In this document: positions 5,648 to 38,923 of the stretch, piece after piece | How positions within the stretch are numbered: position 1 is the first letter of the stretch | Layout: each line of letters starts with the position of its first letter | DNA from: a virus | Strand: one strand, 5' to 3' | DNA length: 64,000 bases | Virus record (IMG/VR): IMGVR_UViG_3300050014_000073 | Span: 1 to 64,000 of that record | Position numbers and translations under genes: made by a program | The notes under the pieces: model-generated | What the model saw: only the letters and a program-made list of their open reading frames with translations | Databases searched by the model: none | Told to the model about the DNA's origin: nothing

Positions 5648-5657
5648 ATTATACGGG
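5648..5657 (-). promoter_or_regulatory. GTATAAT junction motif
   Basis: Minus-strand CCCGTATAAT overlapping the TAA stop of the SbcDC fusion. Same motif family as at 13511, 18073, 26288, 26642, 27801 and 36865. Candidate -10 element for the 4832-5611 gene, here with a 36-nt leader. Confidence 0.4.
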
Positions 5658-8462
5658 AAGTTCTCTTAGAGTTGAAATCCCGTCCTTCTTTGTAACTTCC
5701 CAATGGCGATCTGGTTCCAGTTCCGACAAGACGTAAGGTGAATGCGAAATCACGATGACGTGCTTGAACCGTTCAATTACGGAACTCAGTCCCTGTGCAA
5801 AAGCTCTTGCGTTCGAGGCATCTAGTCCCTCCGTAGGCTCGTCCATCACTAGGAGGTTATGAGGAACAAGTGCATCCCGGAAAGCAAGAGCCGTTATCAG
5901 GCCCGCGAGACGCATCTCTCCAGCGCTCTGGTCCTTTATGGATTTCCCCCCATGAAGATTGCAAACTCGGACGTCAATGTCTCCTCCCGAAATCTCGAAT
6001 TGGATTCCAATCTCTCCTTCCGAGAAGATCTCGCTGTATTTAGAAGCTGCAGAGTTGAGTGCCGGTGCTACGACGGAGCACAAGTAAGCCGGGAGCCCAT
6101 CACGTCCTACAACTTTGACACAAGTCTCAAGAAACTGAACTTCTTCTAACCAGGCAAGATTTGCTCTTTCATGAACAGACCGCTTTTGCTTCAGTTCTGC
6201 TCCACGTGACATCTTGGAAGAGAGAATTGTTTCCAGACGCCGACGAGCATCAGCTTGCTCTTTTAGAACGGTCAAACTGCTGTTCAAGGCAGTCAAAGTT
6301 CGTCGCATCTTATCGCTCTGGAAATTATTCGCTTGGATCTTTTCAATGAGAGTTCGACGAGTAGTTCGGTTCTCGTTTTGCAATCCTTCATAGCGTTCAA
6401 GAGTGACTTCTTCACAGGCAATCTTCGACTTGATCTCCTCTTGGTATTTCTCGAGAGTTTCAACGGATACTTTCCCTCCGCAGACATAGCAGCGTCCAGA
6501 GACTTTTGCACTCGCGTCGTACTGTTCCTTAAGAGTTTCGATCTTCGTTTCCGATTCCGTTGCTTTCGAGAGATAGCTTTCAAACTCCTGCTGGTTCTTT
6601 TCCATTGTTGGCTCCAGCGTCTTATTCATTAGGGCGTTCCGACGAATTGAAGCCTCTTCCTCAGCAACGGCTTTCTCTGTCTCGGAAACTTTCTTCGAAT
6701 CAACTTCGGGAGTTGTTGTAAGAGTCTCCTGTATCTCGGTCAGTCCTCTGACAGTCTCTTCAAGAGCGGAATCAAGCGAACGGATTTCACCTTCGGTATC
6801 TTCGACATTATTACGGCAGCGTGAAAGGACTTTCCGGATCTTCTCCTGAGCTTCCAGGAATCGGTCAAGTCCAAGAAGACGGCTGAACAGTTCCTTCCTG
6901 TCTTTCTCGGTTCCGAACACTGAACCAATCTCGCGCTGCCCAATATAGACAGCATTCGTCAGAACAGACCAGGTCAAGTTTGTCAGGCGTTCAATGCGCA
7001 TCTGAGTGGCCTCAGCTGTTCCCATTGAAATCTCACTTCCGTCAAGATAAATCCGCAGCCGTCCAGGACGCCGTCCTCGTTCGATTCGGAGACTTCGTCC
7101 GTCCGGTATCTCCAAACTTTGTGTGACAAGTGCTGGAAGAGTGGACTCCTGACGCGCCCAGCCGTCAAATGTCTGGCCTTTGAAAGTTCGTCCGAAAAGA
7201 GCAAGAAAGGGCAATGCAGTAACGCTTGATTTCCCACTTCCGTTACTTACACTCTCGTCCGGGTTCCAGTCCAGGTTCTTTCCGGTGATGAGAGTGAGTC
7301 CTTTTTGGTCCAGGTTCAGCTTGATGTCTTTGAAACAGAGAACTTCCTTCGCAGTGACCTCTCCGAACTTCAATCCCTGAACGCCGAATACTCCAATTGA
7401 CTTGAGGTACGTCTGCAAATATGCAATAACTTGATCGACTGTCACTCCTGCTGGAAGCACCAGCTTCTCAAGGTAGTCACGAAGAAGTCCCTCGTCGTTC
7501 TTGGTTGTGTCAATACTGGTGGGAACAGCTTGTGGAGCAACAAACTCGGGAACGAGGTGAAGGTTTGCTCCTGGATAATGCTTTTCGCAGATCTTTCTAG
7601 CTGAGGCGAGTTCCTTTGGAACGTCGTTCTCAATGGGCACTGAAATGCGAACTCTTGTTCCCGTCCAGTCTATCGGGGAAAAGAAGTCTTTCTTAGAAGG
7701 GTCGTACCAGCCGGGAACTCGACTGGGAACGAGAGTGACGCAGTGCTTGAGGGTCTTCTCATCGATGTCAAGGCAGAAGATGCTCTTCAGTTCATTCACT
7801 TCGCTCCAAGTTTGGCAAAACGGGGAACCTGCGAAATAGATTGGAGTTCCTTTTCCTCCCTTGGGAACTAATAGTTGTGGGAGGTGAATGTGACCTCCAA
7901 CGCAGATATTATAAGTTTCAGCAGAGAGGTAAGGACGAATGAGACCTTTCCCTTTCGTATAGGTGCTTTGCTGACACCCTTCGACCTCGTTGTGGAAAAC
8001 AAGGATGCCAAAATCGCTAGAAGGGTATTTCGTAGCTTCCTGAGCGGCTGCTGCAAACTCCTTCCGTTGAGATTCCGGATCACGCAGGTATGGAACTAAG
8101 AACAGCCGGACGTGAGGTCCTAGCTTCGCAACTTTCCAACCGTGATCCGCGACAACGTCTGCTCCAAGAGCTTCGATAAGAGTAGCGCAGGACGGTGAAC
8201 CATCATGAATAGTCACGCTGTCATGATTTCCGCGAAGGAAATAAACTCCTTGACACTGTTCCCGAATCCTTCGAACGGATTCAACCAGGAAATTTGTAAC
8301 TCTCTGATCAATCAAAGTTGCTGGACCGTTGGCGCTCCCGACAATGTCTCCCAGATGAACAACGAAATCTGGTTTCAGGGAAAGGATCTGATCGACGATG
8401 ATTTGGCAGCGATCTAAGTTCTCGAGGAAGCAATGCCAATCTCCACTCATGATGACACGCAT
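5649..8462 (-). CDS. fused SbcD-SbcC (Mre11-Rad50-like) nuclease/ATPase
   Basis: A 937-residue fusion. Residues 1 to about 250 are a calcineurin-type metallophosphoesterase (GDWH, HLGDIVGS, LRGNHDS, GGHIH), the SbcD/gp47 nuclease. From about residue 365 an SMC-type ATPase begins: Walker A NGSGKSS, two long coiled-coil arms around the zinc hook CYVCGG, signature QSAGE, Walker B LLVMDEPTEGLDAS. Separate SbcD and SbcC (T4 gp47 and gp46) normally assemble to resect DNA ends and open hairpins; here both are in one chain. It ends in CCCGTATAAT overlapping the stop. Upstream lie a two-box element and the CRISPR mini-array. Confidence 0.92.
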   Translation of the reverse strand: MRVIMSGDWHCFLENLDRCQIIVDQILSLKPDFVVHLGDIVGSANGPATLIDQRVTNFLVESVRRIREQCQGVYFLRGNHDSVTIHDGSPSCATLIEALGADVVADHGWKVAKLGPHVRLFLVPYLRDPESQRKEFAAAAQEATKYPSSDFGILVFHNEVEGCQQSTYTKGKGLIRPYLSAETYNICVGGHIHLPQLLVPKGGKGTPIYFAGSPFCQTWSEVNELKSIFCLDIDEKTLKHCVTLVPSRVPGWYDPSKKDFFSPIDWTGTRVRISVPIENDVPKELASARKICEKHYPGANLHLVPEFVAPQAVPTSIDTTKNDEGLLRDYLEKLVLPAGVTVDQVIAYLQTYLKSIGVFGVQGLKFGEVTAKEVLCFKDIKLNLDQKGLTLITGKNLDWNPDESVSNGSGKSSVTALPFLALFGRTFKGQTFDGWARQESTLPALVTQSLEIPDGRSLRIERGRRPGRLRIYLDGSEISMGTAEATQMRIERLTNLTWSVLTNAVYIGQREIGSVFGTEKDRKELFSRLLGLDRFLEAQEKIRKVLSRCRNNVEDTEGEIRSLDSALEETVRGLTEIQETLTTTPEVDSKKVSETEKAVAEEEASIRRNALMNKTLEPTMEKNQQEFESYLSKATESETKIETLKEQYDASAKVSGRCYVCGGKVSVETLEKYQEEIKSKIACEEVTLERYEGLQNENRTTRRTLIEKIQANNFQSDKMRRTLTALNSSLTVLKEQADARRRLETILSSKMSRGAELKQKRSVHERANLAWLEEVQFLETCVKVVGRDGLPAYLCSVVAPALNSAASKYSEIFSEGEIGIQFEISGGDIDVRVCNLHGGKSIKDQSAGEMRLAGLITALAFRDALVPHNLLVMDEPTEGLDASNARAFAQGLSSVIERFKHVIVISHSPYVLSELEPDRHWEVTKKDGISTLRELPV

Positions 8463-8473
8463 GTATTTTCCTT

Positions 8474-8572
8474 TTTAGCGACCCTAGGACCGTCGCTGCA
8501 TCCTAACCTATGGAAAAGTACCTAACAACCCGTCCGGACGTGTCCTAGCGACCCGTAGCGATCAGGTTTAGG
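8474..8572 (-). promoter_or_regulatory. two-box element plus palindrome upstream of SbcDC
   Basis: Read leftward: box 1 (GCTACGGGTCGCTAGG) lies inside a 32-nt block (8541-8572) identical in reverse complement to 41687-41718. After 19 nt comes box 2 TAGGTACTTTTC (8513-8524). A box B palindrome-like block (GACGGTCCTAGGGTCGC, 8474-8496) lies next to the gene start. The 19-nt spacer holds the palindrome CGTCCGGACG. It probably is the promoter and operator for the SbcDC gene. Confidence 0.6.
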
Positions 8573-8587
8573 TCCCTAATGGACAGT

Positions 8588-8687
8588 GTTTCAATCCACG
8601 CCGCTCGCGCGGGCAGCGACGACATTTTAGTTACGCTCCTAATGCCACCACCTGATTTCAATCCACGCCGCTCGCGTGGGCGGCGAC
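8588..8687 (-). CRISPR. type I-C-like CRISPR mini-array: two repeats, one 34-nt spacer
   Basis: Two 33-nt repeats (8588-8620 and 8655-8687) flank a 34-nt spacer (8621-8654). On the minus strand each runs from GTCGC to GTGGATTGAAAC/T, the ends typical of type I-C repeats, with an internal GCNGC/GCGGC hairpin. No cas genes are in the window. The minus-strand first repeat ends in T instead of C and continues CAGGT, exactly as the solitary repeat at 36494 does. It lies between the clamp-loader gene and the SbcDC promoter and is transcribed leftward if it shares that direction. Confidence 0.85.
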
Positions 8688-8762
8688 TTCTCGCCTCTCA
8701 AACTGTAATTGCTCCGCCGAGGAATACAGATAACAGAACCAGACTTCCGTATTCTAGAAGCT

Positions 8763-9752
8763 TCACTGTCTAGCTCCGTAACGTGAACATATCTGATAGA
8801 GTTCAGCGTGTAGCCAATGAACCCACATCGCGTCATCGTAAGGAGGCGAGCAAAGCTCTAACAAACATTTCGCTGCCCGGGCTTGCCCTACTGGAGTGGG
8901 CTCCTTGACGAGAATCCCCTTGAGCCATCCTGCCATACAAGCGCGAAGAAAGCGGCTGTCTTCTGGAGTTGTGTCTTTCAGAAGAGTGCAGGTCTCTTTC
9001 CAGTTCCCGGAAGTCACTGCTCGACAAAGCCGGAACGTGTCAACCGAAGATCCGTCAGCTCCAGCAGCAGCATCACTTGCTGTTGCACCAGCAGCGTACT
9101 TCTCGAGAGCTTGAAGCAGAAGCCCTGGAGCGCTGACGCGCATGATATGAACAGCTTCAATTAAAGGATCAAGAGCACGAGTCACTTCAGCTTTGGCTGC
9201 ATACTTCTTAAGAAAGTTCTCAGTGTCTGTAATTCCAAGAGTCTTCAACTGGTACTTCGTGCAGCGCCGGATGCTTGCTACAGGAACTTTCCGTATCTCA
9301 GACGTGCAGAGAATCCAGACGGTGAATTCAGGAGGCTCCTCCATAGGAGTCAAGATGGCATTCCAAGCCTGTTTACTCAGACCGTGGCATTCGTCGAGTA
9401 TGATAATGCGCTTCATCCCAGTGATAGGACGGTGCTGGCTTAGTTCGGCGATCTTCTCGAGTTCGTCTACTCCGGAATGCTCTGATGCATTGATCTCGTG
9501 AATTGGGAAGTTGGAGAAATTCTTCCAGCAGTCTTCACAAGGGTCACCCCAGAGTTTCATGTGGGAGCACTGGAATGCAAGCGCAATAATACGTGCCAAT
9601 GTTGTTTTCCCTGATCCGGATTCACCGTAGAACAACCAGGTTCTTGGTGGGCGTTTTGCCATGTGCTGCCGGATCGCGGAAACAATTGCCGTCTGCCCGT
9701 ATAGTCCACTTAGAGTTCTCGGGCGCATTGAGAGATTGAGCGTTCTTGGCAT
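8763..9752 (-). CDS. DNA polymerase clamp loader (DnaX/RFC-like)
   Basis: A 329-residue AAA+ ATPase. Walker A GESGSGKTT near residue 44, a CEDC zinc-type insertion at about 74, Walker B IIILDECHGL, sensor 1 (LCTSE), and an arginine-finger region RRCTKY equivalent to the SRC motif. These are features of gamma/tau and RFC small subunits, which open the sliding clamp and place it on primed DNA. A clamp gene (16829-17887) and polymerase are in the same operon-like run. Confidence 0.88.
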   Translation of the reverse strand: MPRTLNLSMRPRTLSGLYGQTAIVSAIRQHMAKRPPRTWLFYGESGSGKTTLARIIALAFQCSHMKLWGDPCEDCWKNFSNFPIHEINASEHSGVDELEKIAELSQHRPITGMKRIIILDECHGLSKQAWNAILTPMEEPPEFTVWILCTSEIRKVPVASIRRCTKYQLKTLGITDTENFLKKYAAKAEVTRALDPLIEAVHIMRVSAPGLLLQALEKYAAGATASDAAAGADGSSVDTFRLCRAVTSGNWKETCTLLKDTTPEDSRFLRACMAGWLKGILVKEPTPVGQARAAKCLLELCSPPYDDAMWVHWLHAELYQICSRYGARQ

Positions 9753-9970: not shown

Positions 9971-11695
9971 TTACTCTCCTTCCTTCTTCTTGACATCGTC
10001 AGCCGGGACAAATTCTAGCGGTCCGTTGAAAAGTAATCTGTAGCCAATCTCCGAGGATTCTCCTCCACCCGTCTTGTTCTTGAGGCATTTCATGATTCCA
10101 CGAATACCGATCACTTCGCCCTTATCCATAATCTTGCTCCCCGCAACGCGGTGAACTCGAACTCGAACGTGGCTGTAGAACTTTGGGGCATTGCCTCCCG
10201 GTGTATGAGAAGAGTCACCAAACGATGATTTGGGGCCTTCACGAAGCTGGTTGACAAGAATGATAAGTGCATTATGAACTTGCGCACATCCTACCCAACG
10301 CCGAAGAAGCCTCCCCATGAAAAGAGGAAGGTCCATATTCGTTCGCATGTTGGCATCTTCAAGGCCCGTGAGGGATTCACCTTCAGTAAGGAGTGCTGCG
10401 ATGGAGTCTAAGACAACAACTCGTTTCGTATGCCCTTTTTGTTGCATTGACGCTTCGATCTCACTACAGAGCTCTTGAGCAGTCGAGAGCCGAGGATTCT
10501 TCTCTTGGTGAGTCTTCCCGGTCTTCTTGTCAACGTAACTGAACTGACCAACATAGGGCTGAATCAAAGTCAGTTTGGATACATCGAGACCAGCCGTCGT
10601 AGCTTCAGGACCGCCGCAGGAAATGCATTCGGTAAGAATAGCAGGGTCTTTCACTGTTGGACGGGTTCCAGTTCCATTGCAGTGCGGGCACTTTGCCATC
10701 CCACGGACCCTTGCCCAACCGGGATCGAAACTGTTCTCGACGTCACCGTATACAACATGGGCCCCGTCGTATTGAGCAAGAGCCGCGATTGACATCACGA
10801 GGGCCGACTTTCCCTGTGAGTTATGGACCACGACGCCGTTCGCAACGAAGTTGTCGATCCCTGGAACGGTCATGTCGTAGACGTCTTCGTAGCCGTAGAA
10901 TTCCACCTTCTTGACTTTGCCGGATCTTCCTTCTAAGTTCCGTTTTGTTGCGTGGTACGAGAGGTGATCGAAGCAAGTCTTCCATTCGAGGTTGTCGACG
11001 GAATGATTATGGTCGTTCTCGTCTTTATGATGCCCGTCCCATTCATCTGTCGGACGATCACCATAAATCTCTGAAAGAATGAACCGATGCTCCGAAAAAT
11101 TCTCACCGTTGTTCAAATGAATTACAGAATGCCCGTTCGTCAGCTTCCGAAAGAAGGGCATGATGCGATCTCCCGGCTTCAGATCTGAAAGTTTTCGGTA
11201 TCCTTGTGACTCCCAATCGTAAGCGGAACTGTACTTCGATCGAGAGGTTGAACGTTCACGAAGCATGAACGGATGAGAAGCAGTCGCGATAATGAACTCG
11301 GGTTGCTTTCCATAGATACGAACTGAGTTCTTAGGGACTTGGAAGGTTACTTTGTAGACAGGACGCTTTCCTACTTTCCAGACACAAGACGCCTGTCGAA
11401 GTACGATGCGTCCTAACTTCTGATCAAAGCCATACACCCATGGCTTGGTCCCGACAAGGTTTTTGATGGGGATTCCTTTCGGGAATCTATCAAGGTCTCG
11501 CGGACAGTCGATTAAAGTTTCTCCGGCGAGACACTCCCACCCAGAAACTTCGATCATCCTCCCATACGGGATTCCGCGATCCTTGTGTCCTAGAACAGTA
11601 TTCAGTCCGGGGATTTTCGTGTCAAGCCAGAGCTGAGGCGTCCATTTGAGAGTAAGATGCCCCAGAGCTTGCCGTATCCTGTCTAATTCAGTCAT
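9971..11695 (-). CDS. RecA-like recombinase interrupted by an intein
   Basis: A 574-residue precursor. The host protein (residues 1-54 plus 293-574) is a RecA/UvsX-type strand-exchange ATPase. The P-loop is rebuilt as GWESQGKSA after splicing, Walker B is VVVLDSIAALL, L1/L2-like glycine regions (HTPGGNAPKFYSH) follow, and there is a CPHCNGTG...CISC zinc-ribbon insertion about 35 residues after the P-loop. An intein occupies residues 55-292. The spliced recombinase would pair with the ssDNA-binding protein encoded immediately upstream. A box-1 copy of the two-box element lies before the gene. Confidence 0.92.
   Translation of the reverse strand: MTELDRIRQALGHLTLKWTPQLWLDTKIPGLNTVLGHKDRGIPYGRMIEVSGWECLAGETLIDCPRDLDRFPKGIPIKNLVGTKPWVYGFDQKLGRIVLRQASCVWKVGKRPVYKVTFQVPKNSVRIYGKQPEFIIATASHPFMLRERSTSRSKYSSAYDWESQGYRKLSDLKPGDRIMPFFRKLTNGHSVIHLNNGENFSEHRFILSEIYGDRPTDEWDGHHKDENDHNHSVDNLEWKTCFDHLSYHATKRNLEGRSGKVKKVEFYGYEDVYDMTVPGIDNFVANGVVVHNSQGKSALVMSIAALAQYDGAHVVYGDVENSFDPGWARVRGMAKCPHCNGTGTRPTVKDPAILTECISCGGPEATTAGLDVSKLTLIQPYVGQFSYVDKKTGKTHQEKNPRLSTAQELCSEIEASMQQKGHTKRVVVLDSIAALLTEGESLTGLEDANMRTNMDLPLFMGRLLRRWVGCAQVHNALIILVNQLREGPKSSFGDSSHTPGGNAPKFYSHVRVRVHRVAGSKIMDKGEVIGIRGIMKCLKNKTGGGESSEIGYRLLFNGPLEFVPADDVKKKEGE
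10820..11533 (-). other. HNH-containing intein within the recombinase
   Basis: It begins at Cys55 (CLAGETLID, block A), has block B TASHPFM, and a central HNH endonuclease domain (WDGHHKDENDHN, then NLEW). It ends with block F and G sequence NFVANGVVVHN before the +1 Ser293. The insertion is exactly inside the Walker A motif of the host protein, a classic intein site that makes activity dependent on splicing. At 238 residues it is a small bifunctional intein with an HNH rather than LAGLIDADG homing domain. Confidence 0.92.
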
Positions 11696-22553: not shown

Positions 22554-23420
22554 TCATATCACAAGTTTTCTTGCAAGAACTCTTTGTATTCCAGCATCAG
22601 TATCAAGAACAGACCACGACTTGATTTTACTGCTTGCCTTCTTGATCTCTATAGCAATTGCTTCCGCGACGGCGGGAACGACTGCGTTCCCACACATTCG
22701 TTTACGAACGGCATCAGAAAATCCCGAAGTCCAGCCAATTGGAAATCCAAATCCGTATTCATACTCTTCCGCCAAAAGACGCCGTAACCCTTTTCCGGAC
22801 TTCCAAACGAAATTTGCATTACGAACATTTCCGCCTTCTTGTGACATAAGACAACCCAAAACTGCATGTTGAACTTTAGACAGCGCTTTACGAGATGATG
22901 GATTAGTTGCTTGGACATGAAACATTCGAATTGCAGTTTTGGAAGTACAGCCAACGACAAAGGCTCTTTCGCGGTTTTGAGGTACAAATTGGGAGGCGTT
23001 CGCCCAGATAACAACGACTGCGTATCCGCAGGCTTCCAGTGCGAGAGCGAACTCGTTAACATTTGGTGAAGGAACATTCTCGCGGACCACCCACCGAGGC
23101 GCGAGTCGTGCTGCCACGGCAAGGTAGTATCCGGACAAGTCGGGATGACGGCTTTCATGATTTCCTTTCGCAATAGAGCGCGCGGGGCAGGGGTCTCCTC
23201 CGATGATTACATCTGGAACTGGAATGGGATTGTTCCCTAAAAGTCTAGTTTTTAGAAGATCCTTGACATCAGAATAAATTGGAACTCCAGGAAACTTGTT
23301 ATGAAGCCGTTGACAGGATCGGTCTTTCTCACAGAACCAGATTGTCTTGAATCCTGCGTTGCAAAAGCCGAGATCCATTCCTCCGATTCCTGAGAACAGA
23401 CTTCCAACCGTCAGCTTCAC
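22554..23420 (-). CDS. DNA (cytosine-5) methyltransferase
   Basis: 288 residues. Motif I is VGSLFSGIGGMDLGF, motif IV GGDPCPARS with the catalytic Cys, motif VI VRENVPSP, motif VIII PQNRERAFVVG, and motif X KRMCGNAVVPAVAEAIA. It transfers a methyl group from SAM to cytosine C5 in DNA, probably protecting phage DNA from host restriction; no partner endonuclease is seen. It overlaps the helicase gene by 4 nt (ATGA type). Confidence 0.9.
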   Translation of the reverse strand: MKLTVGSLFSGIGGMDLGFCNAGFKTIWFCEKDRSCQRLHNKFPGVPIYSDVKDLLKTRLLGNNPIPVPDVIIGGDPCPARSIAKGNHESRHPDLSGYYLAVAARLAPRWVVRENVPSPNVNEFALALEACGYAVVVIWANASQFVPQNRERAFVVGCTSKTAIRMFHVQATNPSSRKALSKVQHAVLGCLMSQEGGNVRNANFVWKSGKGLRRLLAEEYEYGFGFPIGWTSGFSDAVRKRMCGNAVVPAVAEAIAIEIKKASSKIKSWSVLDTDAGIQRVLARKLVI

Positions 23421-24787
23421 GGTTCCTCCGGAACGGCATTCATTTTCGCATACCGGGCCGTCGCTTCTGCGTCGTATATGCTTCCCTGCTTCAAGTCCGG
23501 GACGATCTCACACCCAATTTCCATCCGGGCGTTTTTATGCGCCGCAACCCATAAGTAAATCGAATCTTCAGTCCAGTCCCCTTTTCCCATCGAGATTCCA
23601 CAAGCGACTTTCCGCATCTTGCCGATGTCTTCGGCAACACGATCCCCGCTCAGGATCTTGAGATTCCGCGTATCACGCTGGGTCTGAGCAGCTACCCAGC
23701 CCACCTGGTTGTACCGAGCCATGAACTGCCGCAAGCCTCGATAGACATCGTCAGATTCAAACCGCTTCTCGGAATATTTCCGGCTCGGTCGGATTTCCTC
23801 ATCATAGTCAATGAGCGTCGCATCAGGTATGAATCCCTCATCTCGAAATGACCCGACGGCAGATTCAAGAGTTGCAAGAGTAAATCCCCCCTCCGTCCCA
23901 TCATAGATCTTGATCTTCCCGTGAACTGAGTTCTTGAACTTCTCAAATCTCTTGGTAAGAGTCTGAGGATAGTCTGCCAGTCCAATCATCGAAATATGCG
24001 AGACGATTGCGTCCAGCCGGTCCTCGACAGTTTTTCGTGGGTCTTCAAGTGTGACGTACAGTACATTGAGCCTCTGCCGTGCGTAGGCGATCGCTAGCCA
24101 CTCTAAGAACATACTTTTGCCCCGTTTGTACGGGGCCAGGACCATGCCCAGCTCCTTAGGTGCTACAAGAGGGACGATCTGGTCGAGAGGTTCAATAAGA
24201 GAGTAGGGAACCCGAACATGCTTTCGTTCAGCTAGACGGCGGGCGATACGGTCATCGAGAGTTGACAGATAGTCAGTAGTCCGGTTCTCGTTCTGGAGAA
24301 CAAGAACTCCCTTCCTGACGATCTCTGCCCACTTCTCGTCTGTGAGCTGTCCCGAAGAGTGAAGATCGACTAACTCTTCTATCGCGTTCTTGCGAAGCTG
24401 GTTGCTTTTGAACTTGACAACCTTTTCTACTAAGGCATCCGGAGCTGAGAGCTTGAGTTTCTCTATTGAAGCAACGTACTCGAAAAGTTCGGCTTTCTGC
24501 ATTGCCCCAAGATCAAGCTGATGGGCATACTCTAAGACGTCGGACTGCGCCAGTTTCCCGAGAGGTTCGTGATGTTTCTTCCAGAACTCCAACGCTCGTT
24601 CCGCTACAATCCAGCGAGCTCGGCCGCGAGGCGCTGCTTTGTCAGGACGGAAATCTTCGGGTGACAGTAACGTTCCACACTGCTTCAGAGTATGATGATC
24701 GAGAACGAGAAGAGCAACCAGACTGTCCTGGAAGTGTGTGTCGTCCCACCAGCGGCTTGGAGATGGATGTTTGGAGGCTATAGACAT
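23417..24787 (-). CDS. DnaB-like replicative helicase
   Basis: 456 residues with an N-terminal DnaB-type helical domain (about 1-110), a linker, and a RecA-like ATPase. Walker A is the variant APYKRGKSMF, Walker B is ATLIDYDEEI, and later come WVAAQTQRD and a sensor region. It unwinds DNA at the fork and would bind the primase at 20345. A hexanucleotide repeat array lies immediately upstream of its start. Confidence 0.82.
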   Translation of the reverse strand: MSIASKHPSPSRWWDDTHFQDSLVALLVLDHHTLKQCGTLLSPEDFRPDKAAPRGRARWIVAERALEFWKKHHEPLGKLAQSDVLEYAHQLDLGAMQKAELFEYVASIEKLKLSAPDALVEKVVKFKSNQLRKNAIEELVDLHSSGQLTDEKWAEIVRKGVLVLQNENRTTDYLSTLDDRIARRLAERKHVRVPYSLIEPLDQIVPLVAPKELGMVLAPYKRGKSMFLEWLAIAYARQRLNVLYVTLEDPRKTVEDRLDAIVSHISMIGLADYPQTLTKRFEKFKNSVHGKIKIYDGTEGGFTLATLESAVGSFRDEGFIPDATLIDYDEEIRPSRKYSEKRFESDDVYRGLRQFMARYNQVGWVAAQTQRDTRNLKILSGDRVAEDIGKMRKVACGISMGKGDWTEDSIYLWVAAHKNARMEIGCEIVPDLKQGSIYDAEATARYAKMNAVPEEP

Positions 24788-24799
24788 TGAACTAGGTTA

Positions 24800-24973
24800 T
24801 GACCGCGACTCCGACCCCGACCGCGACCCCGACCCCGACCGCGGCCTCAACCCCGACTGCGACCACGACCGCGACCCCGACCCCGACCACGACCTCGACC
24901 ACGACCGCGACCCCGACCCCGACCGTGACCTCAACCCCGACTGCGACCACGACCGCGACCCCGACCCCGACCA
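24800..24973. repeat. degenerate hexanucleotide array (GACCNC)n, copy 1
   Basis: About 29 tandem hexamers of the form GACCNC (+ strand), the fifth base varying freely, with an occasional CTCAACC. It ends in a 29-nt unique block (24969-24997) that is identical after the second array. Open frames through it (VG/AV or WS/GS repeats) follow from the period and are not taken as genes. It sits between the helicase and the 24999 gene. Confidence 0.85.
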
Positions 24974-24998
24974 TTTATGAAGTTTGTTCCAACGCATA

Positions 24999-25568
24999 TC
25001 ACGCTCTCCTGAAATTCCTTCTGGGATGAAGTTCCCGAAATCGCTGTCGACGAATCTCGTTCTCGAATTGAATCCGTTTCTGAGGTATTGTCTTTAGATA
25101 GTTTTTCAGTTCCCTATCCGGATCGAGATCTTCTTTTCCCGACCAAGCTAGTTTTATACTTGGTAGATTGTAGGACTTCCGGTTCTCACCATTCGGATAT
25201 GTCTTGATGACGGCTTCTTCGAGACGCTGTCGAGCTGAGGCGCTTGCAATGAGAGAAGCCGGAAGCCCAAGGTGGAGTTCCTTATCGTTGTTCGGATCGT
25301 ACTTCCGTCCCTGCTTATAGACAAGAGTCAAGACGTCGAGAATAAACTCAGGCGTAACGCAGTAGCGCATCGACCATACTTTGAGAGTAAGTAGTAGGAG
25401 TTCAGCATTCGGTCCTAGAGGCATCCATACAATGACATCTTCTGAATAAGGTTTCCGGTTGGTTCGCTGTCTACGAGAGTTCTCGACTTGCAATAAAGCT
25501 TTCTCAAGTCGAGACGCCCAGGCAGTGACAGCCTCCCGCAGTGCATGTTTAAGTTCAAGGTCTACCAT
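24999..25568 (-). CDS. hypothetical protein, 189 aa
   Basis: Unrecognised, helical, with a basic C-terminus (RIQFENEIRRQRFRELHPRR). Located just upstream of the replicative helicase, where phages often keep a helicase loader, but no ATPase motif is present and the role is unknown. Overlaps the next gene by 7 nt. Confidence 0.6.
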   Translation of the reverse strand: MVDLELKHALREAVTAWASRLEKALLQVENSRRQRTNRKPYSEDVIVWMPLGPNAELLLLTLKVWSMRYCVTPEFILDVLTLVYKQGRKYDPNNDKELHLGLPASLIASASARQRLEEAVIKTYPNGENRKSYNLPSIKLAWSGKEDLDPDRELKNYLKTIPQKRIQFENEIRRQRFRELHPRRNFRRA

Positions 25569-25783: not shown

Positions 25784-25804
25784 TGTGTTAGATTTTCTAT
25801 AGCT

Positions 25805-25985
25805 GCGACCCCGACCCCGACCCCGACTCCCGACCGCGACTCCGACCCCGACCGCGACCTCAACCCCGACCACGACCACGACCGCGACCACGACCCCGAC
25901 CGCGACCTCAACCCCGACCACGACCACGACCGCGACCCCGACCACGACCCCGACCACGACCGCGACCCCGACCACGACCCCGACC
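25805..25985. repeat. degenerate hexanucleotide array (GACCNC)n, copy 2
   Basis: About 30 GACCNC hexamers, longer-period structure around CTCAACCCC, and the same 29-nt block (25982-26010) at its right end as copy 1. The two arrays are about 1 kb apart and bracket two genes (24999 and 25562). Confidence 0.85.
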
Positions 25986-26018
25986 ATTTATGAAGTTTGT
26001 TCCAACGCATCGGAAATC

Positions 26019-26282
26019 CTACTTCCCTTCGCCGAAACTTTCGATAGCTCCACGCTGCACATACCAAGACGTGCCCGGAAGCGGTTGAGCATCTTTGTAG
26101 CCCCGTTCGGTAAACGCACCCGTTTCGTAAACGATCTTGGCGTCGGTTAGCAGAACGCAAGACTCATTCACTCCGGAAAGAGTTCCGGCATAGATGTAGT
26201 TCAAGCAGAATAGAAGGACTGACTTTCCAATAAGAGAAAGCAATCCTTCTTCGTCTTCGGAAACTTCAATAAGCTTTTTCAT
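26019..26282 (-). CDS. conserved small phage protein, 87 aa
   Basis: Begins MKKLIEVSEDEEGLLSLIGK. Beta-rich middle ALLFCLNYIYAGTL-like (LFCLNYIYAGTLSGVN) and end SWYVQRGAIESFGE match a small protein seen in many phages and plasmids; function unknown, perhaps Sm-like. ATG is 5 nt from a TATAAT motif, so it may be translated from a leaderless mRNA. Confidence 0.7.
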   Translation of the reverse strand: MKKLIEVSEDEEGLLSLIGKSVLLFCLNYIYAGTLSGVNESCVLLTDAKIVYETGAFTERGYKDAQPLPGTSWYVQRGAIESFGEGK

Positions 26283-28371: not shown

Positions 28372-29162
28372 ACGTCATCACTTTCGGAGAGACGCTCTTA
28401 CAAACACGGGACCTCGATCCAGTATACGTTATGCTGTACCGTTCTCAATTTTCGTTCTTCCAAAAAGAACGCTTTACCGTAGCGTACTGGCTATTCTATC
28501 ATTCAGGAGTTTCTGCACTGCTTTCTGAAAAGATGGGGCATGCGTTCTGGGACGCTTGCCAGGAACAGTTAACTCTTGCTCCAAGGGGAACGGAGAGACG
28601 ACACTTCCGTGGATCTGCTGCAACGAAAGCAGTCCAGGCTCTTCATAGTCTCTATCCAGATCCTGAAGATTTTGTGGAAGCAATGTGTCCATCTCAGAGT
28701 ACATGCGAGACGTTCCACACAGTTTCATCGCGAGTGGAAAAGCTTCCGCAGTTCGGACCTTGGATTGCTTTCAAAGTCTGTGATATGCTAGAACGTGTTC
28801 TAGATCGTCAGATTGATTCCTCAGGATGCATAGATCTTTGGTTTCGAGAGCCTCTTACTGGTGCAGAGAAAGCTGCTACTGCTTTCTCTCTTCCTTCCCG
28901 CGATGCTGCGATTCAGTTCCTTCTTGAGAAGTTTCATAGCTGGGGCGCTCCACCTGACTACAAGCGTAAAGTCAACTTGCAGGAGATCGAAACAATCTTA
29001 TGCAAGTGGAAGGCACATCTTGGAGGCCATTACGAGATTGGGAAGGATACTTACGAGATATTGCATGGACTCCGAAAGTATTCCTCACGCTCTTCTAGTG
29101 CTGCGCACCTGATAGACTGTTTGCAAGAAGGGACTTTGTGCAAGAGGAATACTCTTTGCTGA
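28365..29162 (+). CDS. alpha-glutamyl/putrescinyl-thymine pyrophosphorylase-like (amino acid:DNA transferase)
   Basis: 265 residues, TTG start. Motifs RFTVAYWLFYHSGVSALLS, PRGTERRHFRG and FGPWIAFKVCDMLERVL match the helix-hairpin-helix DNA-glycosylase-derived family that displaces pyrophosphate from 5-(PP-oxymethyl)uracil in DNA and attaches an amino acid or polyamine. A DNA-base kinase that would make the substrate is the next gene and a second member of the superfamily follows. The nucleophile added cannot be told from sequence. Confidence 0.8.
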   Translation: MLDVITFGETLLQTRDLDPVYVMLYRSQFSFFQKERFTVAYWLFYHSGVSALLSEKMGHAFWDACQEQLTLAPRGTERRHFRGSAATKAVQALHSLYPDPEDFVEAMCPSQSTCETFHTVSSRVEKLPQFGPWIAFKVCDMLERVLDRQIDSSGCIDLWFREPLTGAEKAATAFSLPSRDAAIQFLLEKFHSWGAPPDYKRKVNLQEIETILCKWKAHLGGHYEIGKDTYEILHGLRKYSSRSSSAAHLIDCLQEGTLCKRNTLC

Positions 29163-29737
29163 AACCACCTCACGTTCCGGTTATCAACATCCGTGGAGTA
29201 AACGGAAGTGGGAAGAGTTATCTAGTCCGTTCTTGGATGAAACTGCTTGGAGCGAAACCATATCCGCAGCGGTCAAATTTGTTTGGAGGAGAGACTGCAA
29301 CTGGAGCGGAGTACTATTTGCTTTCAGACGATGGAAGGGTGATCGGGGACTACCGTACCAATTGCGGAGGCTGTGACCGCATCCACTCCCAAGATGAAGT
29401 TGCGGACCATATTCGGTTAGGGATTTCCTCTGGTTCACGTTACGTTCTGTTCGAAGGTGTGATTCTCTCAACAGTGTTTGAGTATTGGCATCAGTTCAGC
29501 CAGTCCATCAACGGGATGCTCTGGGTCTATCTTGACACCCCACTGGAAGTTTGTTTGAAGAGGGTTTCCGAGCGAAACAAGAACAAGGCATTCAAAGAGA
29601 ATCTCGTTCGGGACAAGTTCCGGCAGGTTGCTTCCACGCGCCGTCGAGCAGAAGCCGCTGGAGAGAAAGTGTTTGAGATTCATTGGGAGAACGCAGAGAA
29701 AGAGCTAGAAAACCTCATAGCAGGATTAAACATATGA
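29138..29737 (+). CDS. P-loop 5-hydroxymethyluracil DNA kinase-like
   Basis: 199 residues, GTG start. Walker A GVNGSGKSYLVR, a Cys-rich loop (RTNCGGCDRIH), a VLFEGVIL strand as Walker B, and a lid with CLKRVSERNKNKAF. It resembles the P-loop kinases that phosphorylate 5-hydroxymethyluracil in phage DNA to 5-(PP-oxymethyl)uracil. Its overlap with one pyrophosphorylase gene and ATGA coupling to the next supports this. Overlaps the upstream gene by 25 nt. Confidence 0.75.
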   Translation: MQEEYSLLKPPHVPVINIRGVNGSGKSYLVRSWMKLLGAKPYPQRSNLFGGETATGAEYYLLSDDGRVIGDYRTNCGGCDRIHSQDEVADHIRLGISSGSRYVLFEGVILSTVFEYWHQFSQSINGMLWVYLDTPLEVCLKRVSERNKNKAFKENLVRDKFRQVASTRRRAEAAGEKVFEIHWENAEKELENLIAGLNI

Positions 29738-29859
29738 AACTTCCTAAAGTTCGTATGCTCCGGCAGATTCTATATTGGATGGAGGAGCGACAGAGACGAA
29801 TGCGCCTGGCAAACGCCGCCGTATGGGTGTTACGGAAACAGAAGAGGAGACTTATATGA
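29734..29859 (+). CDS. 41-aa paralogue of the next protein's N-terminus
   Basis: MKLPKVRMLRQILYWMEERQ repeats the start of the following protein (MKLPPVRNLKKFLWFMEERQ). It is joined at both ends by ATGA overlaps. It looks like a duplicated and truncated N-terminal helix module; it may be a fragment, or a small partner peptide, since the frame is intact and translationally coupled. Confidence 0.6.
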   Translation: MKLPKVRMLRQILYWMEERQRRMRLANAAVWVLRKQKRRLI

Positions 29860-30773
29860 AGTTGCCTCCGGTAAGGAACTTGAAGAAGTTTTTGTGGTTT
29901 ATGGAGGAGCGCCAAAGGGTTTATTTAAGGCGACAGGCAGGTGAACCTTATCCTTGGACTTCGGATCCCATCTTACGCCGCTTTCGATTTTGCAATGTTT
30001 ATCGAGAGCAGGATCGGGTGACGACTTTTTGGCGAGAACGTTGGGCAAAGAAATACGCTGATCACTCGAACTTATGGTTTGCTGCTTGCTTGTTTCGGCA
30101 CATCAACTGGCCCAATACGCTCGAAGAAATTGGATTCCCCAAAGAGTGGAATCCTCGTAAGGTCCTTCGCATTCTCGAGAAGCGGAAAGCACGGGGAGAT
30201 AAAGTCTACACAAGTGCTTATCTTCTCGGAGGCGGAAACACCAAGCATGAAACCAAAGTCCGCTACACGGTGATGACAGTATTGAATCCTGTGTGGAAGT
30301 GGGTTGAGAAGGCTCTTCCTGGAACGGGTCGTATTGCTCCTTGGTTAACTGACGGAACTGATGACGTTCCCTGTACGTTACGCGAAATGTTCGATTGGCT
30401 CTGCCAGTTCCACGGCTTCGGGAAGTTTCTCTCCTACGAAATCGTCACCGATCTTCGTCATACTCGTTATCTATGCAACGCTCCTGACATAATGACTTGG
30501 GCGAATCTCGGTCCGGGAGCGCAGCGCGGATTGAACCGTCTTTACGAACGGGAGCTGAATCAGTCACATCCCCAGGCTCAGCTTCTCGAAGAGCTTCTGG
30601 CAATTCAAGAGTGGGTGGTTAAGAACCGTGATTCGAGAGTTCTTCCTACGATAGAGCCACGAGATCTCGAACATAGTTTTTGCGAGTGCGACAAACTTCT
30701 TAGAGCCAAGGAGCGCCTTGTGCAAGGACGTATAATCGGTCTAGAAAGATTCAGACATCCAGGCTTGATTTGA
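29856..30773 (+). CDS. alpha-glutamyl/putrescinyl-thymine pyrophosphorylase clade 1-like
   Basis: 305 residues. EPYPWTSDPILRRFRFCNVYRE with EQDRVTTFW is characteristic of clade 1 of this family, followed by FHGFGKFLSYEIVTDLRHT in the helix-hairpin-helix part and a C-terminal DLEHSFCECDKLLR. Predicted to add an amine-bearing group to pyrophosphorylated 5-hydroxymethyluracil in DNA. Start at 29856 is chosen because the 41-aa upstream gene ends there (ATGA) and AGAGGAGA precedes it. Confidence 0.82.
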   Translation: MKLPPVRNLKKFLWFMEERQRVYLRRQAGEPYPWTSDPILRRFRFCNVYREQDRVTTFWRERWAKKYADHSNLWFAACLFRHINWPNTLEEIGFPKEWNPRKVLRILEKRKARGDKVYTSAYLLGGGNTKHETKVRYTVMTVLNPVWKWVEKALPGTGRIAPWLTDGTDDVPCTLREMFDWLCQFHGFGKFLSYEIVTDLRHTRYLCNAPDIMTWANLGPGAQRGLNRLYERELNQSHPQAQLLEELLAIQEWVVKNRDSRVLPTIEPRDLEHSFCECDKLLRAKERLVQGRIIGLERFRHPGLI

Positions 30774-30791
30774 CGAAGGAGAAATCATAAC

Positions 30792-31274
30792 ATGATAAAC
30801 GCAAGTGAGTTTTACGGACCGCGCCGTCTCAAGGCGCGAAACAACAATACGCTGCTCAAGGGCAACATGATCCCGCGACGGTTCAAGTCCATCGTCATTC
30901 GTGTGACGGGAGTTCGTTCAGCTCCTTCTGACTGGGACTGCCGGCTTATTCTGGACTTCGATTTCCATCCCGAAGCTCTCGAAGCTCTTCGAGGATCGGA
31001 AGCAGCTAGTGCTCATTCCTGGGCTGTAAACAAGACTAATGGCCAGCGGCTTCGTTCGTACTTATCAGCTTCTGACGACTTCGAGGAACTGGTCGACTGC
31101 CGTGTCCGTCTCAAGGTCATTCCGCAACGTGACCCGAAGTCGGGCGAGCGTGTTCGTTCGCTGGAAGTGACTTCTCTAGCACGCGAAGGGTCAACTCATT
31201 GGGAAGTGCTGGCCTCCTCCGGTAGAGATTGCGGAAGAAGACGAAACGTATTTTTCGTATCCTCCTGTTTTTGA
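30792..31274 (+). CDS. hypothetical protein of the modification island, 160 aa
   Basis: Unrecognised; AAGGAGAAATCATAAC precedes the ATG. Beta-rich, with a plausible globular body to about residue 130. The last about 30 residues look out of frame. A neighbouring frame gives an acidic tail (PPPVEIAEEDETYFSYPPVF) that fits better and would be reached by losing one G near 31189. The true C-terminus is therefore uncertain. Confidence 0.6.
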   Translation: MINASEFYGPRRLKARNNNTLLKGNMIPRRFKSIVIRVTGVRSAPSDWDCRLILDFDFHPEALEALRGSEAASAHSWAVNKTNGQRLRSYLSASDDFEELVDCRVRLKVIPQRDPKSGERVRSLEVTSLAREGSTHWEVLASSGRDCGRRRNVFFVSSCF

Positions 31275-31296
31275 GGAGGAGAAAACGGAACTGTTT

Positions 31297-32190
31297 TTGA
31301 AGATCTTCATCCCCACTAAAGGACGTCCGGTTCGGATCAGTACTCACAAGTACTTCCCTTCCGCTTACGTTGTTGTACACAACGAGCAGGAAGCGGAGCA
31401 GTATCGCGCGAATGCAACGATCGATCCTAAACGGATTCTCATTAGTGGAGCGAAGACCGATGCGTTCGGCCTAACTCGACAACGTGAATGGGTGTGCCAG
31501 ACGCAAGCAAAGAAGAATGAGTGGATTCTGTTCGCTGACGATAACATCTATTACTTGCTAGCGATGGATAAGGAACACTATGGTTTTCCAGAAGTTCTAC
31601 TGACGGCAGACCATACCAGATTGTCGGAAGAAGAGAAAGCGACGGCTCGCAAGGAAGGTGCGATCTGGCGTCCTCGTTTCAACACGCGAGTCCCGGTAGA
31701 ACGGTTCTTGAGGGAGATCGTTCCGGATACAGTTTCTCATTGTGAGATTATCGGAGCACACCTTGCAGGGTTTTCTCTTACAGATAACATCTTATTTCGG
31801 CGAAAGAAGTTTGTTGACGTCGGATACGTCATAGGCAAGTTGATGCTCTGGCACAACACTGGGCATGTCCCCTTCGACCATACAGTCACGATGGAAGACT
31901 TCTATCACACAGCCGAGAACCTGAAGCGATACGGAGTTTGCGTAGTAAACAACTTCGTTGCGGTCCGCCCGACGAATTGTCACTATCTTCCAGGCGGAAT
32001 GGGAACGTATGACGAGCGAGTTCCGTATCGCAAGCGGGACGTGGAAACTTTGTTAGCACGGTATCCTGGGATGTTGGCAGTGAAGGACAGAGAGGGATTT
32101 GTTCCAGGAACTGACTTGCGTCTTCTCTTGCATTCACGTGAGGATGTTCAACGATGGCAACGAGCGCAGAAGCGCACAAGATTGTTTTAG
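31297..32190 (+). CDS. TAGT-like DNA-base glycosyltransferase
   Basis: 297 residues, TTG start. GT-A type features: IFIPTKGRPVRISTH at the N-terminus, GLTRQREWV, then the metal-binding WILFADDNIYYLLAMD, and later GAHLAGFSL. This resembles the TET-associated glycosyltransferase family, which adds sugars to hydroxymethylpyrimidines in phage DNA. The neighbouring kinase and pyrophosphorylases support a DNA-base role. Could also act on another acceptor. Confidence 0.65.
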   Translation: MKIFIPTKGRPVRISTHKYFPSAYVVVHNEQEAEQYRANATIDPKRILISGAKTDAFGLTRQREWVCQTQAKKNEWILFADDNIYYLLAMDKEHYGFPEVLLTADHTRLSEEEKATARKEGAIWRPRFNTRVPVERFLREIVPDTVSHCEIIGAHLAGFSLTDNILFRRKKFVDVGYVIGKLMLWHNTGHVPFDHTVTMEDFYHTAENLKRYGVCVVNNFVAVRPTNCHYLPGGMGTYDERVPYRKRDVETLLARYPGMLAVKDREGFVPGTDLRLLLHSREDVQRWQRAQKRTRLF

Positions 32191-32199
32191 GAGGATTTG

Positions 32200-33222
32200 A
32201 TGCGAACTGTGGATCTTAGTCGTGGTGAGCAGGTTCGTCTGTTCAACGGTTTGGCAATCGAGATTGCAAGCAAGTGCAATCGAACTTGCTACTTCTGCCC
32301 GAACGGATACAACCAGCGTGAAGATGTCTTCATGCTGGAGGAAACGGTCTCACGTTTGCTGGAAGAGCTCTCACGCTTGAAGTACTCTGGGCGTATCGAG
32401 TGGTACATCTACAACGAACCGACACGTGACGAACGGCTGAAGATGTTCATTCGTTGGGCGCGAGTTCAGGTTCCGCGCGCTTGCCAGATGATCAACACGA
32501 ACGGTGACTATTTCAAGGATAAGTTTGACATCGCTGCATTGTTCTTTGCTGGTCTCAATCAGATGCAGATCAACATCTACAGCGCGCAGGATAACGCAGA
32601 GAATGATAAGACGTTTGAGAACGGCGTTGCGCAAGCGCGAAAGCGTGAAGCGCAGCTACAATCGTGGGTTGATAAGATCTCCCCAACAATGAATATCCAT
32701 TCGGATGCGAGTCTCTACTTGAACTCAGGCCCGCGAAAGCGTATTTGCAAAGTCGTGGCGAAGTATGGCGTCCGTCCCAGTTTCAAGGATAGTGATCTCG
32801 AGGGGCCAAATCACTTCTCGAACCGCAGTGGAAACATTCCTGGTTTCCGCAATGGGCTTACAGAACCACTGAAGAAGATGTGTGTGCGCCCGTTCAGGTT
32901 TCTCAATATAGATTACCAGGGCGATGCCCTTCTTTGTTGTAACGACTACCATGGAGTTGTTAAGATCGGGAACGTGAAGGACCATACGCTGGTGGAATTG
33001 TGGAACTCTTCGGTTCTCAATCGTTATCGTGTCAAGTTGCAAGGTCATGATCGTAATTCAGCACTGTGCGACAAATGCGACTACAACGGGGGACACTATC
33101 AACATCAGGTGGGACACGTTACGACGGGGTCAGCGGAACAGGATGTGGAGTGGGTACAGGAGCCGTTTTATCCGGGCGGACTGGTTCAGATCGCGCCGAA
33201 GACGGATAAGAGGTTGATTTAG
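32200..33222 (+). CDS. radical SAM enzyme with SPASM domain
   Basis: 340 residues. The [4Fe-4S]-SAM motif CNRTCYFC is near residue 27. The TIM-barrel core is followed by a C-terminal SPASM-type Cys cluster (CVRPF, CCNDY, CDKC) for auxiliary iron-sulfur clusters. In phage thymidine hypermodification, radical SAM enzymes rearrange amino acid groups already attached to the base; SPASM members also act on peptides. Start at ATG 32200 with GGAGG just upstream. Next to the glycosyltransferase with a 9-nt gap. Confidence 0.85.
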   Translation: MRTVDLSRGEQVRLFNGLAIEIASKCNRTCYFCPNGYNQREDVFMLEETVSRLLEELSRLKYSGRIEWYIYNEPTRDERLKMFIRWARVQVPRACQMINTNGDYFKDKFDIAALFFAGLNQMQINIYSAQDNAENDKTFENGVAQARKREAQLQSWVDKISPTMNIHSDASLYLNSGPRKRICKVVAKYGVRPSFKDSDLEGPNHFSNRSGNIPGFRNGLTEPLKKMCVRPFRFLNIDYQGDALLCCNDYHGVVKIGNVKDHTLVELWNSSVLNRYRVKLQGHDRNSALCDKCDYNGGHYQHQVGHVTTGSAEQDVEWVQEPFYPGGLVQIAPKTDKRLI

Positions 33223-33228
33223 AGCTAT

Positions 33229-33316
33229 TACGGATTGCTAGGTCGTTTCCGTGGCATCCGGTTTGTGGAAAGTACCGTATAACTAGTCTAGCGACGGTCC
33301 TAGGGTCGCTAAACAC
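33229..33316 (+). promoter_or_regulatory. two-box element upstream of the thymidylate-synthase-like gene
   Basis: A degenerate box 1 (TACGGATTGCTAGG, 33229-33242), then ACCGTATAACTAG, then box B (GACGGTCCTAGGGTCGC, 33291-33316), whose first 23 nt equal the copy before SbcDC. Candidate promoter and operator for 33361-34374. Confidence 0.55.
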
Positions 33317-36145: not shown

Positions 36146-36523
36146 GTGTCTCCTCGTAAATCACACAAGCTTCTTAAGGGCCCAGCTCTGTCCGAGATCC
36201 TTCGGGTCACAGTTCACCAAGTCAAGTGGTTCGTCGCGGGCCAGCCTACTCTTTTGATTCCTCCTTCAACGGCGCTTGCTCTTGTGAGAGAGGGCGAGTA
36301 TGAAGGTAAGGCAAGTGCCCAGCGAGTCTACTACATACGTGAAATTGACAATTGTCCAAAGCCTGTATGCAATCCTTCGTATTGGGACGACCGTGCTGTC
36401 TACCCTGGTGAAACAGATTCGCCTTCACGACATACTGTAGACCTCTGGGACCAAATTCTCAAGCGCCGTTCCAGTCGCGTAGCTGTTCAAGTTGTCGCCG
36501 CCCACGCGAGCGGCGTGGATTGA
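36146..36523 (+). CDS. hypothetical protein whose 3' end is a CRISPR-like repeat
   Basis: 125 residues from a GTG. The N-terminus (SEILRVTVHQVKWFV) could be a short helix-turn-helix; the rest is unrecognised. The last 10 codons, including the stop, are the solitary type I-C-like repeat at 36494-36526, so either the repeat was inserted at the end of the gene or the frame is only open by chance. Confidence 0.5.
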   Translation: MSPRKSHKLLKGPALSEILRVTVHQVKWFVAGQPTLLIPPSTALALVREGEYEGKASAQRVYYIREIDNCPKPVCNPSYWDDRAVYPGETDSPSRHTVDLWDQILKRRSSRVAVQVVAAHASGVD

Positions 36524-36526
36524 AAT
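36494..36526 (+). CRISPR. solitary type I-C-like CRISPR repeat 1
   Basis: 33 nt, GTCGCCGCC... to GTGGATTGAAAT, with a GCCGC/GCGGC stem. Identical over 33 nt, plus CAGGT beyond, to the first repeat of the mini-array at 8655-8687 (reverse strand). No second repeat lies nearby. Candidate RNA-based anti-CRISPR (Racr) unit. Confidence 0.85.
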
Positions 36527-36873: not shown

Positions 36874-36874
36874 T
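36865..36874 (+). promoter_or_regulatory. ACCGTATAAT junction motif before 36881
   Basis: Overlaps the stop of the 36541 gene; the TATAAT hexamer ends 6 nt before the ATG at 36881. Candidate leaderless promoter. Confidence 0.5.
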
Positions 36875-36880
36875 CAGGTT

Positions 36881-37054: not shown

Positions 37055-37055
37055 T

Positions 37056-38861: not shown

Positions 38862-38873
38862 GGTGTTCGTGCT
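38857..38873. repeat. 17-bp direct repeat around the 38595 gene, copy 2
   Basis: Identical to 38578-38594. It lies 17 nt upstream of the second solitary CRISPR repeat and ends in a -10-like GCTGTGAT. Confidence 0.75.
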
Positions 38874-38890: not shown

Positions 38891-38923
38891 GTCGCTGCCC
38901 GCGCGAGCAGCGTGGATTGAAAC
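38891..38923 (+). CRISPR. solitary type I-C-like CRISPR repeat 2
   Basis: 33 nt, GTCGCTGCC... to GTGGATTGAAAC, with a GCTGC/GCAGC stem. It differs from the 36494 unit at paired positions in a way that keeps pairing. It lies in the gap before the terminase small subunit. Candidate Racr unit. Confidence 0.85.

What the first reader, a model, noticed from the sequence alone, without database searches (positions are those of the whole stretch)
8588..8687. Phage-borne type I-C-like CRISPR mini-array with one spacer
Two 33-nt repeats flank a 34-nt spacer, without cas genes. The repeat ends and hairpin fit type I-C. Phages are known to carry such mini-arrays to use host Cas proteins against rival phages, or as decoys. 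The spacer may name the rival or a host target.
Basis: partly seen in the sequence, partly recalled or inferred. Interest (0 to 1): 0.85.

Follow-up and report, generated by a model that had tools for sequence, protein, structure and literature searches.

The report
Phage copies of a CRISPR repeat
A bacteriophage carries four scattered, slightly damaged copies of a bacterial CRISPR repeat, two of them set up as a one-spacer mini-array, which most likely act as RNA decoys against the immune system of the bacterium it infects.

Summary
All four are read in the direction of their neighbouring genes; no Cas5c or Cas7c gene was found in the 83-kb phage record. The best copy is 32/33 identical to a repeat beside a complete I-C cas operon in a Terriglobia (Acidobacteriota) genome. 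All four share one change, G16 to A, which breaks a stem pair that is intact in 18 of 18 distinct host array repeats; an outer stem pair shows one compensatory change. No protospacer was found, and the flanking repeats are not copies of each other, so recent spacer acquisition against a rival is not supported. Most likely this is a multi-locus I-C repeat mimic that works like the RNA anti-CRISPRs (Racrs), with one pair spaced to give a crRNA of unknown or no target. The kind is known (viral solitary repeats, mini-arrays); the scattered multi-copy layout with one shared stem lesion is a variant. Host, expression and activity are untested.

The parts
8655..8687 (-). Repeat A, upstream repeat of the mini-array; identical to repeat B over 38 nt
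8621..8654 (-). 34-nt spacer between A and C; no protospacer found
8588..8620 (-). Repeat C, downstream repeat of the mini-array; one base from repeat D
36494..36526 (+). Repeat B, solitary; 14 nt before the ATG at 36541; a called ORF (36146-36523) stops inside it
38891..38923 (+). Repeat D, solitary; 26 nt before the ATG at 38950; 32/33 identical to the repeat of L017 and L022

Best explanation
The phage carries a dispersed set of type I-C CRISPR-repeat mimics: two solitary units and one pair spaced like a one-spacer array. Their hairpins would be made as parts of phage gene transcripts. In a host with a I-C system, Cas5c (Cas5d), which binds the repeat stem and leaves the 11-nt 5' handle UGGAUUGAAAY, and then Cas7c would be drawn onto these RNAs and away from the host's own crRNAs. 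The solitary units would give crRNA-like decoys whose 'guide' is simply the phage's own following RNA. The A-C pair would give a complete crRNA-like decoy with no known target. Shown here: repeat identity, four copies at three loci, orientation, no Cas5c/Cas7c gene, shared stem lesion, one compensatory change in the outer stem, an I-C operon beside the nearest repeat. Inferred: transcription, Cas5c binding, loss of immunity, and that the host bears a I-C system (perhaps an Acidobacteriota).
For: Four copies at three loci, none by chance. 32/33 identity to a repeat beside a full I-C cas operon. All four read with the neighbouring genes. The 11-nt handle is kept in all four (handle length from PMC5965380, passages). 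Outer pair 6:19 is C-G, C-G, T-G, T-A in A, B, C, D. Flanking repeats of the pair have their nearest kin elsewhere in the genome, which fits assembly from repeat units and not spacer uptake. Racrs, RacrIC1 included, inhibit CRISPR in a dose-dependent way (shown for RacrIF1), and a non-targeting crRNA also reduces interference (PMC10651486, passages and sections 6, 7, 12).
Against: All four copies have a broken 9:16 pair, and their predicted canonical pairing is 0.02-0.22; in RacrIF1 changes that disrupt Cas6f binding at the stem-loop abolished inhibition, so the lesion could mean decay. No promoter of the consensus type upstream of the pair. Host unknown; only 2 of 396 genomes of the phylum of L017, the L017 genome itself included, hold the repeat within 2 mismatches. 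No acr gene was looked for by a dedicated library. Terminase relatives lack the repeat (0 of 3 records).
Confidence: 0.58

Rival explanations
1. A true virus-borne mini-CRISPR array: the A-spacer-C unit uses host I-C effectors against a competing virus or a host element that matches the spacer, and B and D are stand-alone repeats beside it, as in the archaeal viruses SPV1 and SPV2.
For: Two repeats with a 34-nt spacer, a normal I-C length (192 of 207 spacers are 33-36 nt). SPV1 and SPV2 carry both mini-arrays and stand-alone repeats (PMC6858448, passages). Phage mini-arrays without leaders are mentioned there.
Against: No protospacer, although the IMG/VR scans were exact patterns. The flanking repeats differ at 3 of 33 positions and A shares 5 further nt with B beyond the repeat. 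No repeat identical to A16 forms in 84,980 species genomes.
Confidence: 0.2
2. Decaying remnants: copies of a host repeat that entered the phage by recombination, were duplicated, and have no function now.
For: Shared stem lesion; 5 of 34 distinct viral solitary repeats with an intact outer stem also have a broken 9:16 pair, against 0 of 29 array repeats, p = 0.056.
Against: 38 nt of exact identity between A and B 28 kb apart and the G-C to T-A path at 6:19 suggest recent copying or selection; the handle is untouched; all four keep the sense orientation.
Confidence: 0.14
3. Cas5c-dependent mRNA processing sites: host Cas5c cuts the phage transcripts at the repeats and so changes expression of the genes that follow.
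For: B and D lie 14 and 26 nt before ATG codons; I-C Cas5d cuts pre-crRNA to leave the 11-nt handle (PMC5965380, passages).
Against: C ends 125 nt before the next start codon (8462), with the X and Y elements between. No direct evidence.
Confidence: 0.05

Closest known systems
Solitary repeat units / RNA anti-CRISPRs (Racr), in particular RacrIC1 (Camara-Wilpert et al. 2023, PMC10651486; passages and sections 6, 7, 12 read)
   Same: Viral repeat units without cas genes, of the type of a known bacterial repeat; I-C type; sense orientation; RacrIC1 lies directly behind a gene in one transcript.
   Different: Four units in one phage, two of them in mini-array spacing, which that survey's SRUFinder discards (full matches within 100 bp); all with one shared stem lesion; activity untested here; no neighbouring acr gene known.
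Virus-borne mini-CRISPR arrays of SPV1/SPV2 (Medvedeva et al. 2019, PMC6858448; passages read)
   Same: One-spacer array without cas genes, with stand-alone repeats elsewhere in the same genome.
   Different: There the spacers match close relatives and the arrays have leaders; here no protospacer and no leader were found and the two repeats differ.
IMG/VR record G452 (IMGVR_UViG_3300047539_000079)
   Same: Four I-C-like repeats in one 63.6-kb viral record outside a regular array, all on one strand.
   Different: There the copies share about 70 nt of upstream sequence (one cassette) and an intact stem; in the window only the repeat itself, plus 5 nt in A and B, is shared.
Type I-C CRISPR arrays of Acidobacteriota (L017, L022, L034)
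   Same: Repeat length, handle, outer stem; 32/33 identity to copy D.
   Different: Host repeats keep G16 and all eight stem pairs, and L017 and L034 lie beside cas genes (L017 by NCBIfam; L034 by reading of ORFs only).

Membership tests
Racr / solitary repeat unit (I-C) | At least 90% identity over at least 90% of a known CRISPR repeat | tested here: met
   D 32/33, C 31/33, A and B 30/33 to the nearest array repeat found
Racr / solitary repeat unit (I-C) | Solitary: no other repeat within 100 bp | tested here: not met
   Met by B and D, not met by the A-C pair (start-to-start 67 nt)
Racr / solitary repeat unit (I-C) | Intergenic position | tested here: inconclusive
   A and C 0 of 33 nt in called genes; D 7 of 33, because the caller used a TTG inside it; B 30 of 33, in the end of an ORF without family
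Racr / solitary repeat unit (I-C) | Repeat hairpin kept | tested here: inconclusive
   Outer six pairs can form, pair 9:16 is broken in 4 of 4 copies; predicted canonical pairing 0.02-0.22
Racr / solitary repeat unit (I-C) | Host has a I-C system | tested here: inconclusive
   Host unknown; nearest repeats lie in I-C bearing Acidobacteriota
Racr / solitary repeat unit (I-C) | Expressed as RNA and inhibits CRISPR-Cas | not testable with these tools
   Needs RNA sequencing and an interference assay
Virus-borne mini-CRISPR array | One or two spacers between repeats, no cas genes | tested here: met
Virus-borne mini-CRISPR array | Spacer matches a related virus or other mobile element | tested here: not met
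   IMG/VR by exact patterns only
Virus-borne mini-CRISPR array | Repeats identical to those of the host array | tested here: inconclusive
   No genome held has the A16 form, but the host is unknown
Virus-borne mini-CRISPR array | Leader with promoter (SPV type) | tested here: inconclusive
   No sigma-70-like site at 8400-8900; promoters of other kinds are not covered
Type I-C CRISPR-Cas locus | cas operon with the array | tested here: not met
   no Cas5c or Cas7c in the record; PADLOC listing showed 25 of 64 families

The most novel reading that the evidence does not exclude
The A16 lesion shared by all four copies is the working part: it leaves the Cas5c-binding outer stem and the handle but shifts or weakens the hairpin, so that Cas5c binds and does not cut or let go properly. 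The phage would thus spread Cas5c traps over several of its own transcripts: an RNA sponge built into mRNAs, raised in dose by copying the unit, in place of one separate small RNA.
Probability: 0.17. Interest if true: 0.72.

Novelty: new variant of a known kind. Interest (0 to 1): 0.5.

Why it matters
The survey of viral solitary repeats read here discards close pairs and treats units one at a time. A phage with four mimics at three loci, from two lineages and all with the same stem lesion, suggests that phages can build up repeat mimicry in dose and inside their own transcripts. It offers a direct test of which parts of the I-C repeat a decoy needs (Cas5c with G16 against A16 hairpins). If the spacer proves to have no target, this would be a natural case of a non-targeting crRNA used as a decoy.

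Tried and rejected
Protospacer search: none in phages, plasmids, IMG/VR with a 21-nt pattern with three N positions and an exact 18-mer, 396 Acidobacteriota genomes at up to 3 mismatches, or in the loci held at that time, own genome included (apart from the spacer itself, matches of 15 nt or less, lowest E 1.6; the listing was cut at 60 rows).

Host by spacers: 207 spacers of the 21 genome stretches against the phage gave no convincing match. The top rows (L029, E 0.003) are a degenerate repeat read as a spacer; next is 17 of 18 nt from a Phascolarctobacterium (E 0.007). The 7 spacers of Acidobacteriota loci gave nothing below E 0.39.

Folding of the mini-array in context: rejected as evidence. 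The native fold is no better than with 500 shuffled spacers (0.406 at or below), and the host repeat put in the same frame also folds non-canonically, because two GC-rich repeats pair with each other.

Promoters and terminators: no consensus site at 8400-8900. The TTGAAA-N17-TAAAAT hit that begins in repeat D was not taken as evidence: 4 sites against 2.2 expected, and by eye the other copies have no fitting second hexamer.

Relatives: the terminase gave 3 relatives at 45-51% identity, without the repeat in their whole records at up to 3 mismatches. The clamp loader gave none in IMG/VR. The ORF at 42486 gave 6 that share mostly that module alone; 0 of 6 whole records carry the repeat. The protein of 49138-50139 has no match in phage records. 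Rfam: 0 families at gathering threshold. tRNAs: 0 in the window.

My errors: the pattern was mis-spelt, so their zero results mean nothing. One search used a filter off by one and was redone. The spacer extraction found 0 spacers and was redone, whose listing was cut to 40 rows and was redone, sorted. The joined phage file was one base too long and was corrected.

Full report
Observation. On the minus strand the locus reads repeat A (8655-8687), a 34-nt spacer (8621-8654) and repeat C (8588-8620). The window is part of an 83,140-base virus record. With up to 3 mismatches the repeat pattern occurs four times in the window, against a mean of 0.00 in 100 shuffles, and four times in the whole record. 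The two further copies, B (36494-36526, +) and D (38891-38923, +), were not in the finding.

Anatomy. Genes around 8.6 kb are on the minus strand and genes around 36-39 kb on the plus strand, so all four repeats read GTCGC...GATTGAAA in the direction of the genes. A and C lie in the 300-nt gap between a clamp-loader gene (8763-9752) and a large SbcD/SbcC-like gene (5649-8462); the functions come from PHROG and Pfam hits pooled over 83 ORFs, assigned to these two ORFs by my reading of their sequences, and for the clamp loader also by tblastn. D lies between genes, 26 nt before an ATG. B lies 14 nt before an ATG, and a called ORF (36146-36523) runs into it and stops inside it. A 33-nt stretch wholly outside called genes occurs at about 10% of positions. 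A and B are identical over 38 nt, the repeat plus 5 nt; C and D differ at one position. So the two flanks of the mini-array are not sisters: each has its nearest kin elsewhere in the genome.

Which CRISPR type. In the collection of 84,980 species genomes the phage form (A at position 16) has 0 exact matches. A looser pattern gives 21 stretches, 5 of them Acidobacteriota by record title (L017, L022, L023, L033, L034). The repeat of L017 and L022 is 32/33 identical to D. The genes beside it in L017 are Cas3, Cas5c, Cas8c, Cas7c, Cas4 and Cas1c by NCBIfam, so the repeat belongs to type I-C. Only one repeat is seen in L017, because the contig ends there; L022 holds five. The mini-array region also matches many places in Nitratidesulfovibrio vulgaris and Leptolinea plasmids (that this Nitratidesulfovibrio gave the subtype its old name is recalled). 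Of 396 genomes drawn from the phylum of L017, 2 hold the repeat within 2 mismatches, the L017 genome being one of them. Acidobacteriota is a lead for the host, not a result.

The shared lesion. In 18 of 18 distinct repeats present at least twice in the genome stretches all eight canonical stem pairs can form, and 17 of 18 are predicted to fold canonically (pair probability 0.97 or more). In A, B, C and D pair 9:16 is C-A and cannot form, and predicted canonical pairing is 0.22, 0.22, 0.02 and 0.14. The search pattern fixed position 9 but left position 16 free, so the contrast there is not made by the search. The outer pair 6:19 is C-G in A and B, T-G in C and T-A in D: a compensatory path, consistent with selection on an outer stem, but a single event among four copies; both end states also exist among host repeats, so separate origins are possible. 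The gap between canonical and best fold is only 1.1 to 2.2 kcal/mol, which a binding protein could overcome.

Census in viruses. GTCGC-N15-CGTGGATTGAAA occurs in 62 stretches of IMG/VR. After merging identical repeats 42 are solitary or paired and 11 are arrays; 34 of the 42 have an intact outer stem. Pair 9:16 is broken in 5 of these 34 and in 0 of 11 viral and 0 of 18 host array repeats (Fisher p = 0.056); any break in the two inner pairs: 10 of 34 against 2 of 29 (p = 0.028). Of 50 records searched whole, one (G452) has three or more copies outside a regular array: four, in a cassette with about 70 nt of shared upstream sequence. The window's layout, with little but the repeat shared, is therefore uncommon among I-C repeats of this length; other repeat lengths and types were not counted.

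Spacer. No match in the phage or plasmid collections, in two IMG/VR scans, or in 396 Acidobacteriota genomes. The IMG/VR scans were exact patterns, so a diverged protospacer would be missed.

Mechanism. In the paper on RNA anti-CRISPRs (PMC10651486: passages and sections 6, 7 and 12) solitary repeats act as decoys, RacrIC1 protected a phage from a I-C system, inhibition by RacrIF1 depended on dose, and a non-targeting crRNA also reduced interference, which would fit the A-C pair. I-C crRNAs carry an 11-nt 5' handle made by Cas5d (PMC5965380, passages), and all four units keep it. I therefore favour decoy RNAs, with the mini-array a complete decoy crRNA or, less likely, a guide against an unknown target. 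That transcripts are made, and that Cas5c accepts the A16 form, is inference. The lesion cuts both ways: it may be decay, tolerated change, or the point of the element.

Novelty. Viral mini-arrays and stand-alone repeats are known, also together in SPV1/SPV2 (PMC6858448, passages; review PMC11656645, passages). In the searches (open-licence papers only; listings read, plus the passages named) I saw no report of dispersed multi-copy I-C units with a shared stem lesion. Verdict: a new variant of a known kind.

Noticed in passing
8541-8572, 41687-41718, 53223-53250, 74243-74271 (weaker 715, 11779, 18437); 8474-8502, 33285-33313, 53291-53317 (weaker 66769): Two families of dispersed intergenic elements, X (CCTGATCGCTACGGGTCGCTAGGACA) and Y (AGCGACGGTCCTAGGGTCGCTAAA), sometimes as an X-Y pair with AT-rich DNA between, in the sense direction before genes; they look like promoter or operator modules of the phage. 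One pair lies between repeat C and the SbcD/SbcC-like gene.
   Followed up: partly
window 29138-33219 and elsewhere in the record: Set of thymidine-hypermodification genes: 5-hmdU DNA kinase parts, TET-associated glycosyltransferase, SPASM protein, with ADDT, thymidylate synthase and a uracil-DNA-glycosylase-like hit among the pooled ORFs; a C-5 cytosine methylase at 22557-23420. The phage DNA is probably modified, another shield against nucleases.
   Followed up: partly
window 9971-11695 (-): RecA-like ORF of 574 aa that seems to hold an intein by my reading; RecA and intein-splicing families were each hit by one of 83 ORFs.
   Followed up: no
window 38578-38599 and 38857-38878: A 22-nt direct repeat (21 of 22 identical) of a gene junction; its second copy lies 12 nt before repeat D, perhaps a footprint of the event that brought D in.
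   Followed up: no
window 36541-38861: A run of small genes between repeats B and D; one has a confident PHROG family (phrog_3848, unknown function), the others none or weak hits. Small unknown genes beside repeat mimics are candidates for anti-CRISPR proteins.
   Followed up: partly
L004 2684-2788; L121 (G452:16115-30735): Other viral repeat units from one metagenome (3300047539): in L004 a repeat and its upstream hairpin are duplicated in tandem, so that it looks like a mini-array; in G452 a cassette of about 100 nt with the repeat occurs four times.
   Followed up: partly
window 24768-25045 and 25793-26058: Two blocks of low-complexity DNA with a 12/18-nt period that resemble each other.
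   Followed up: no
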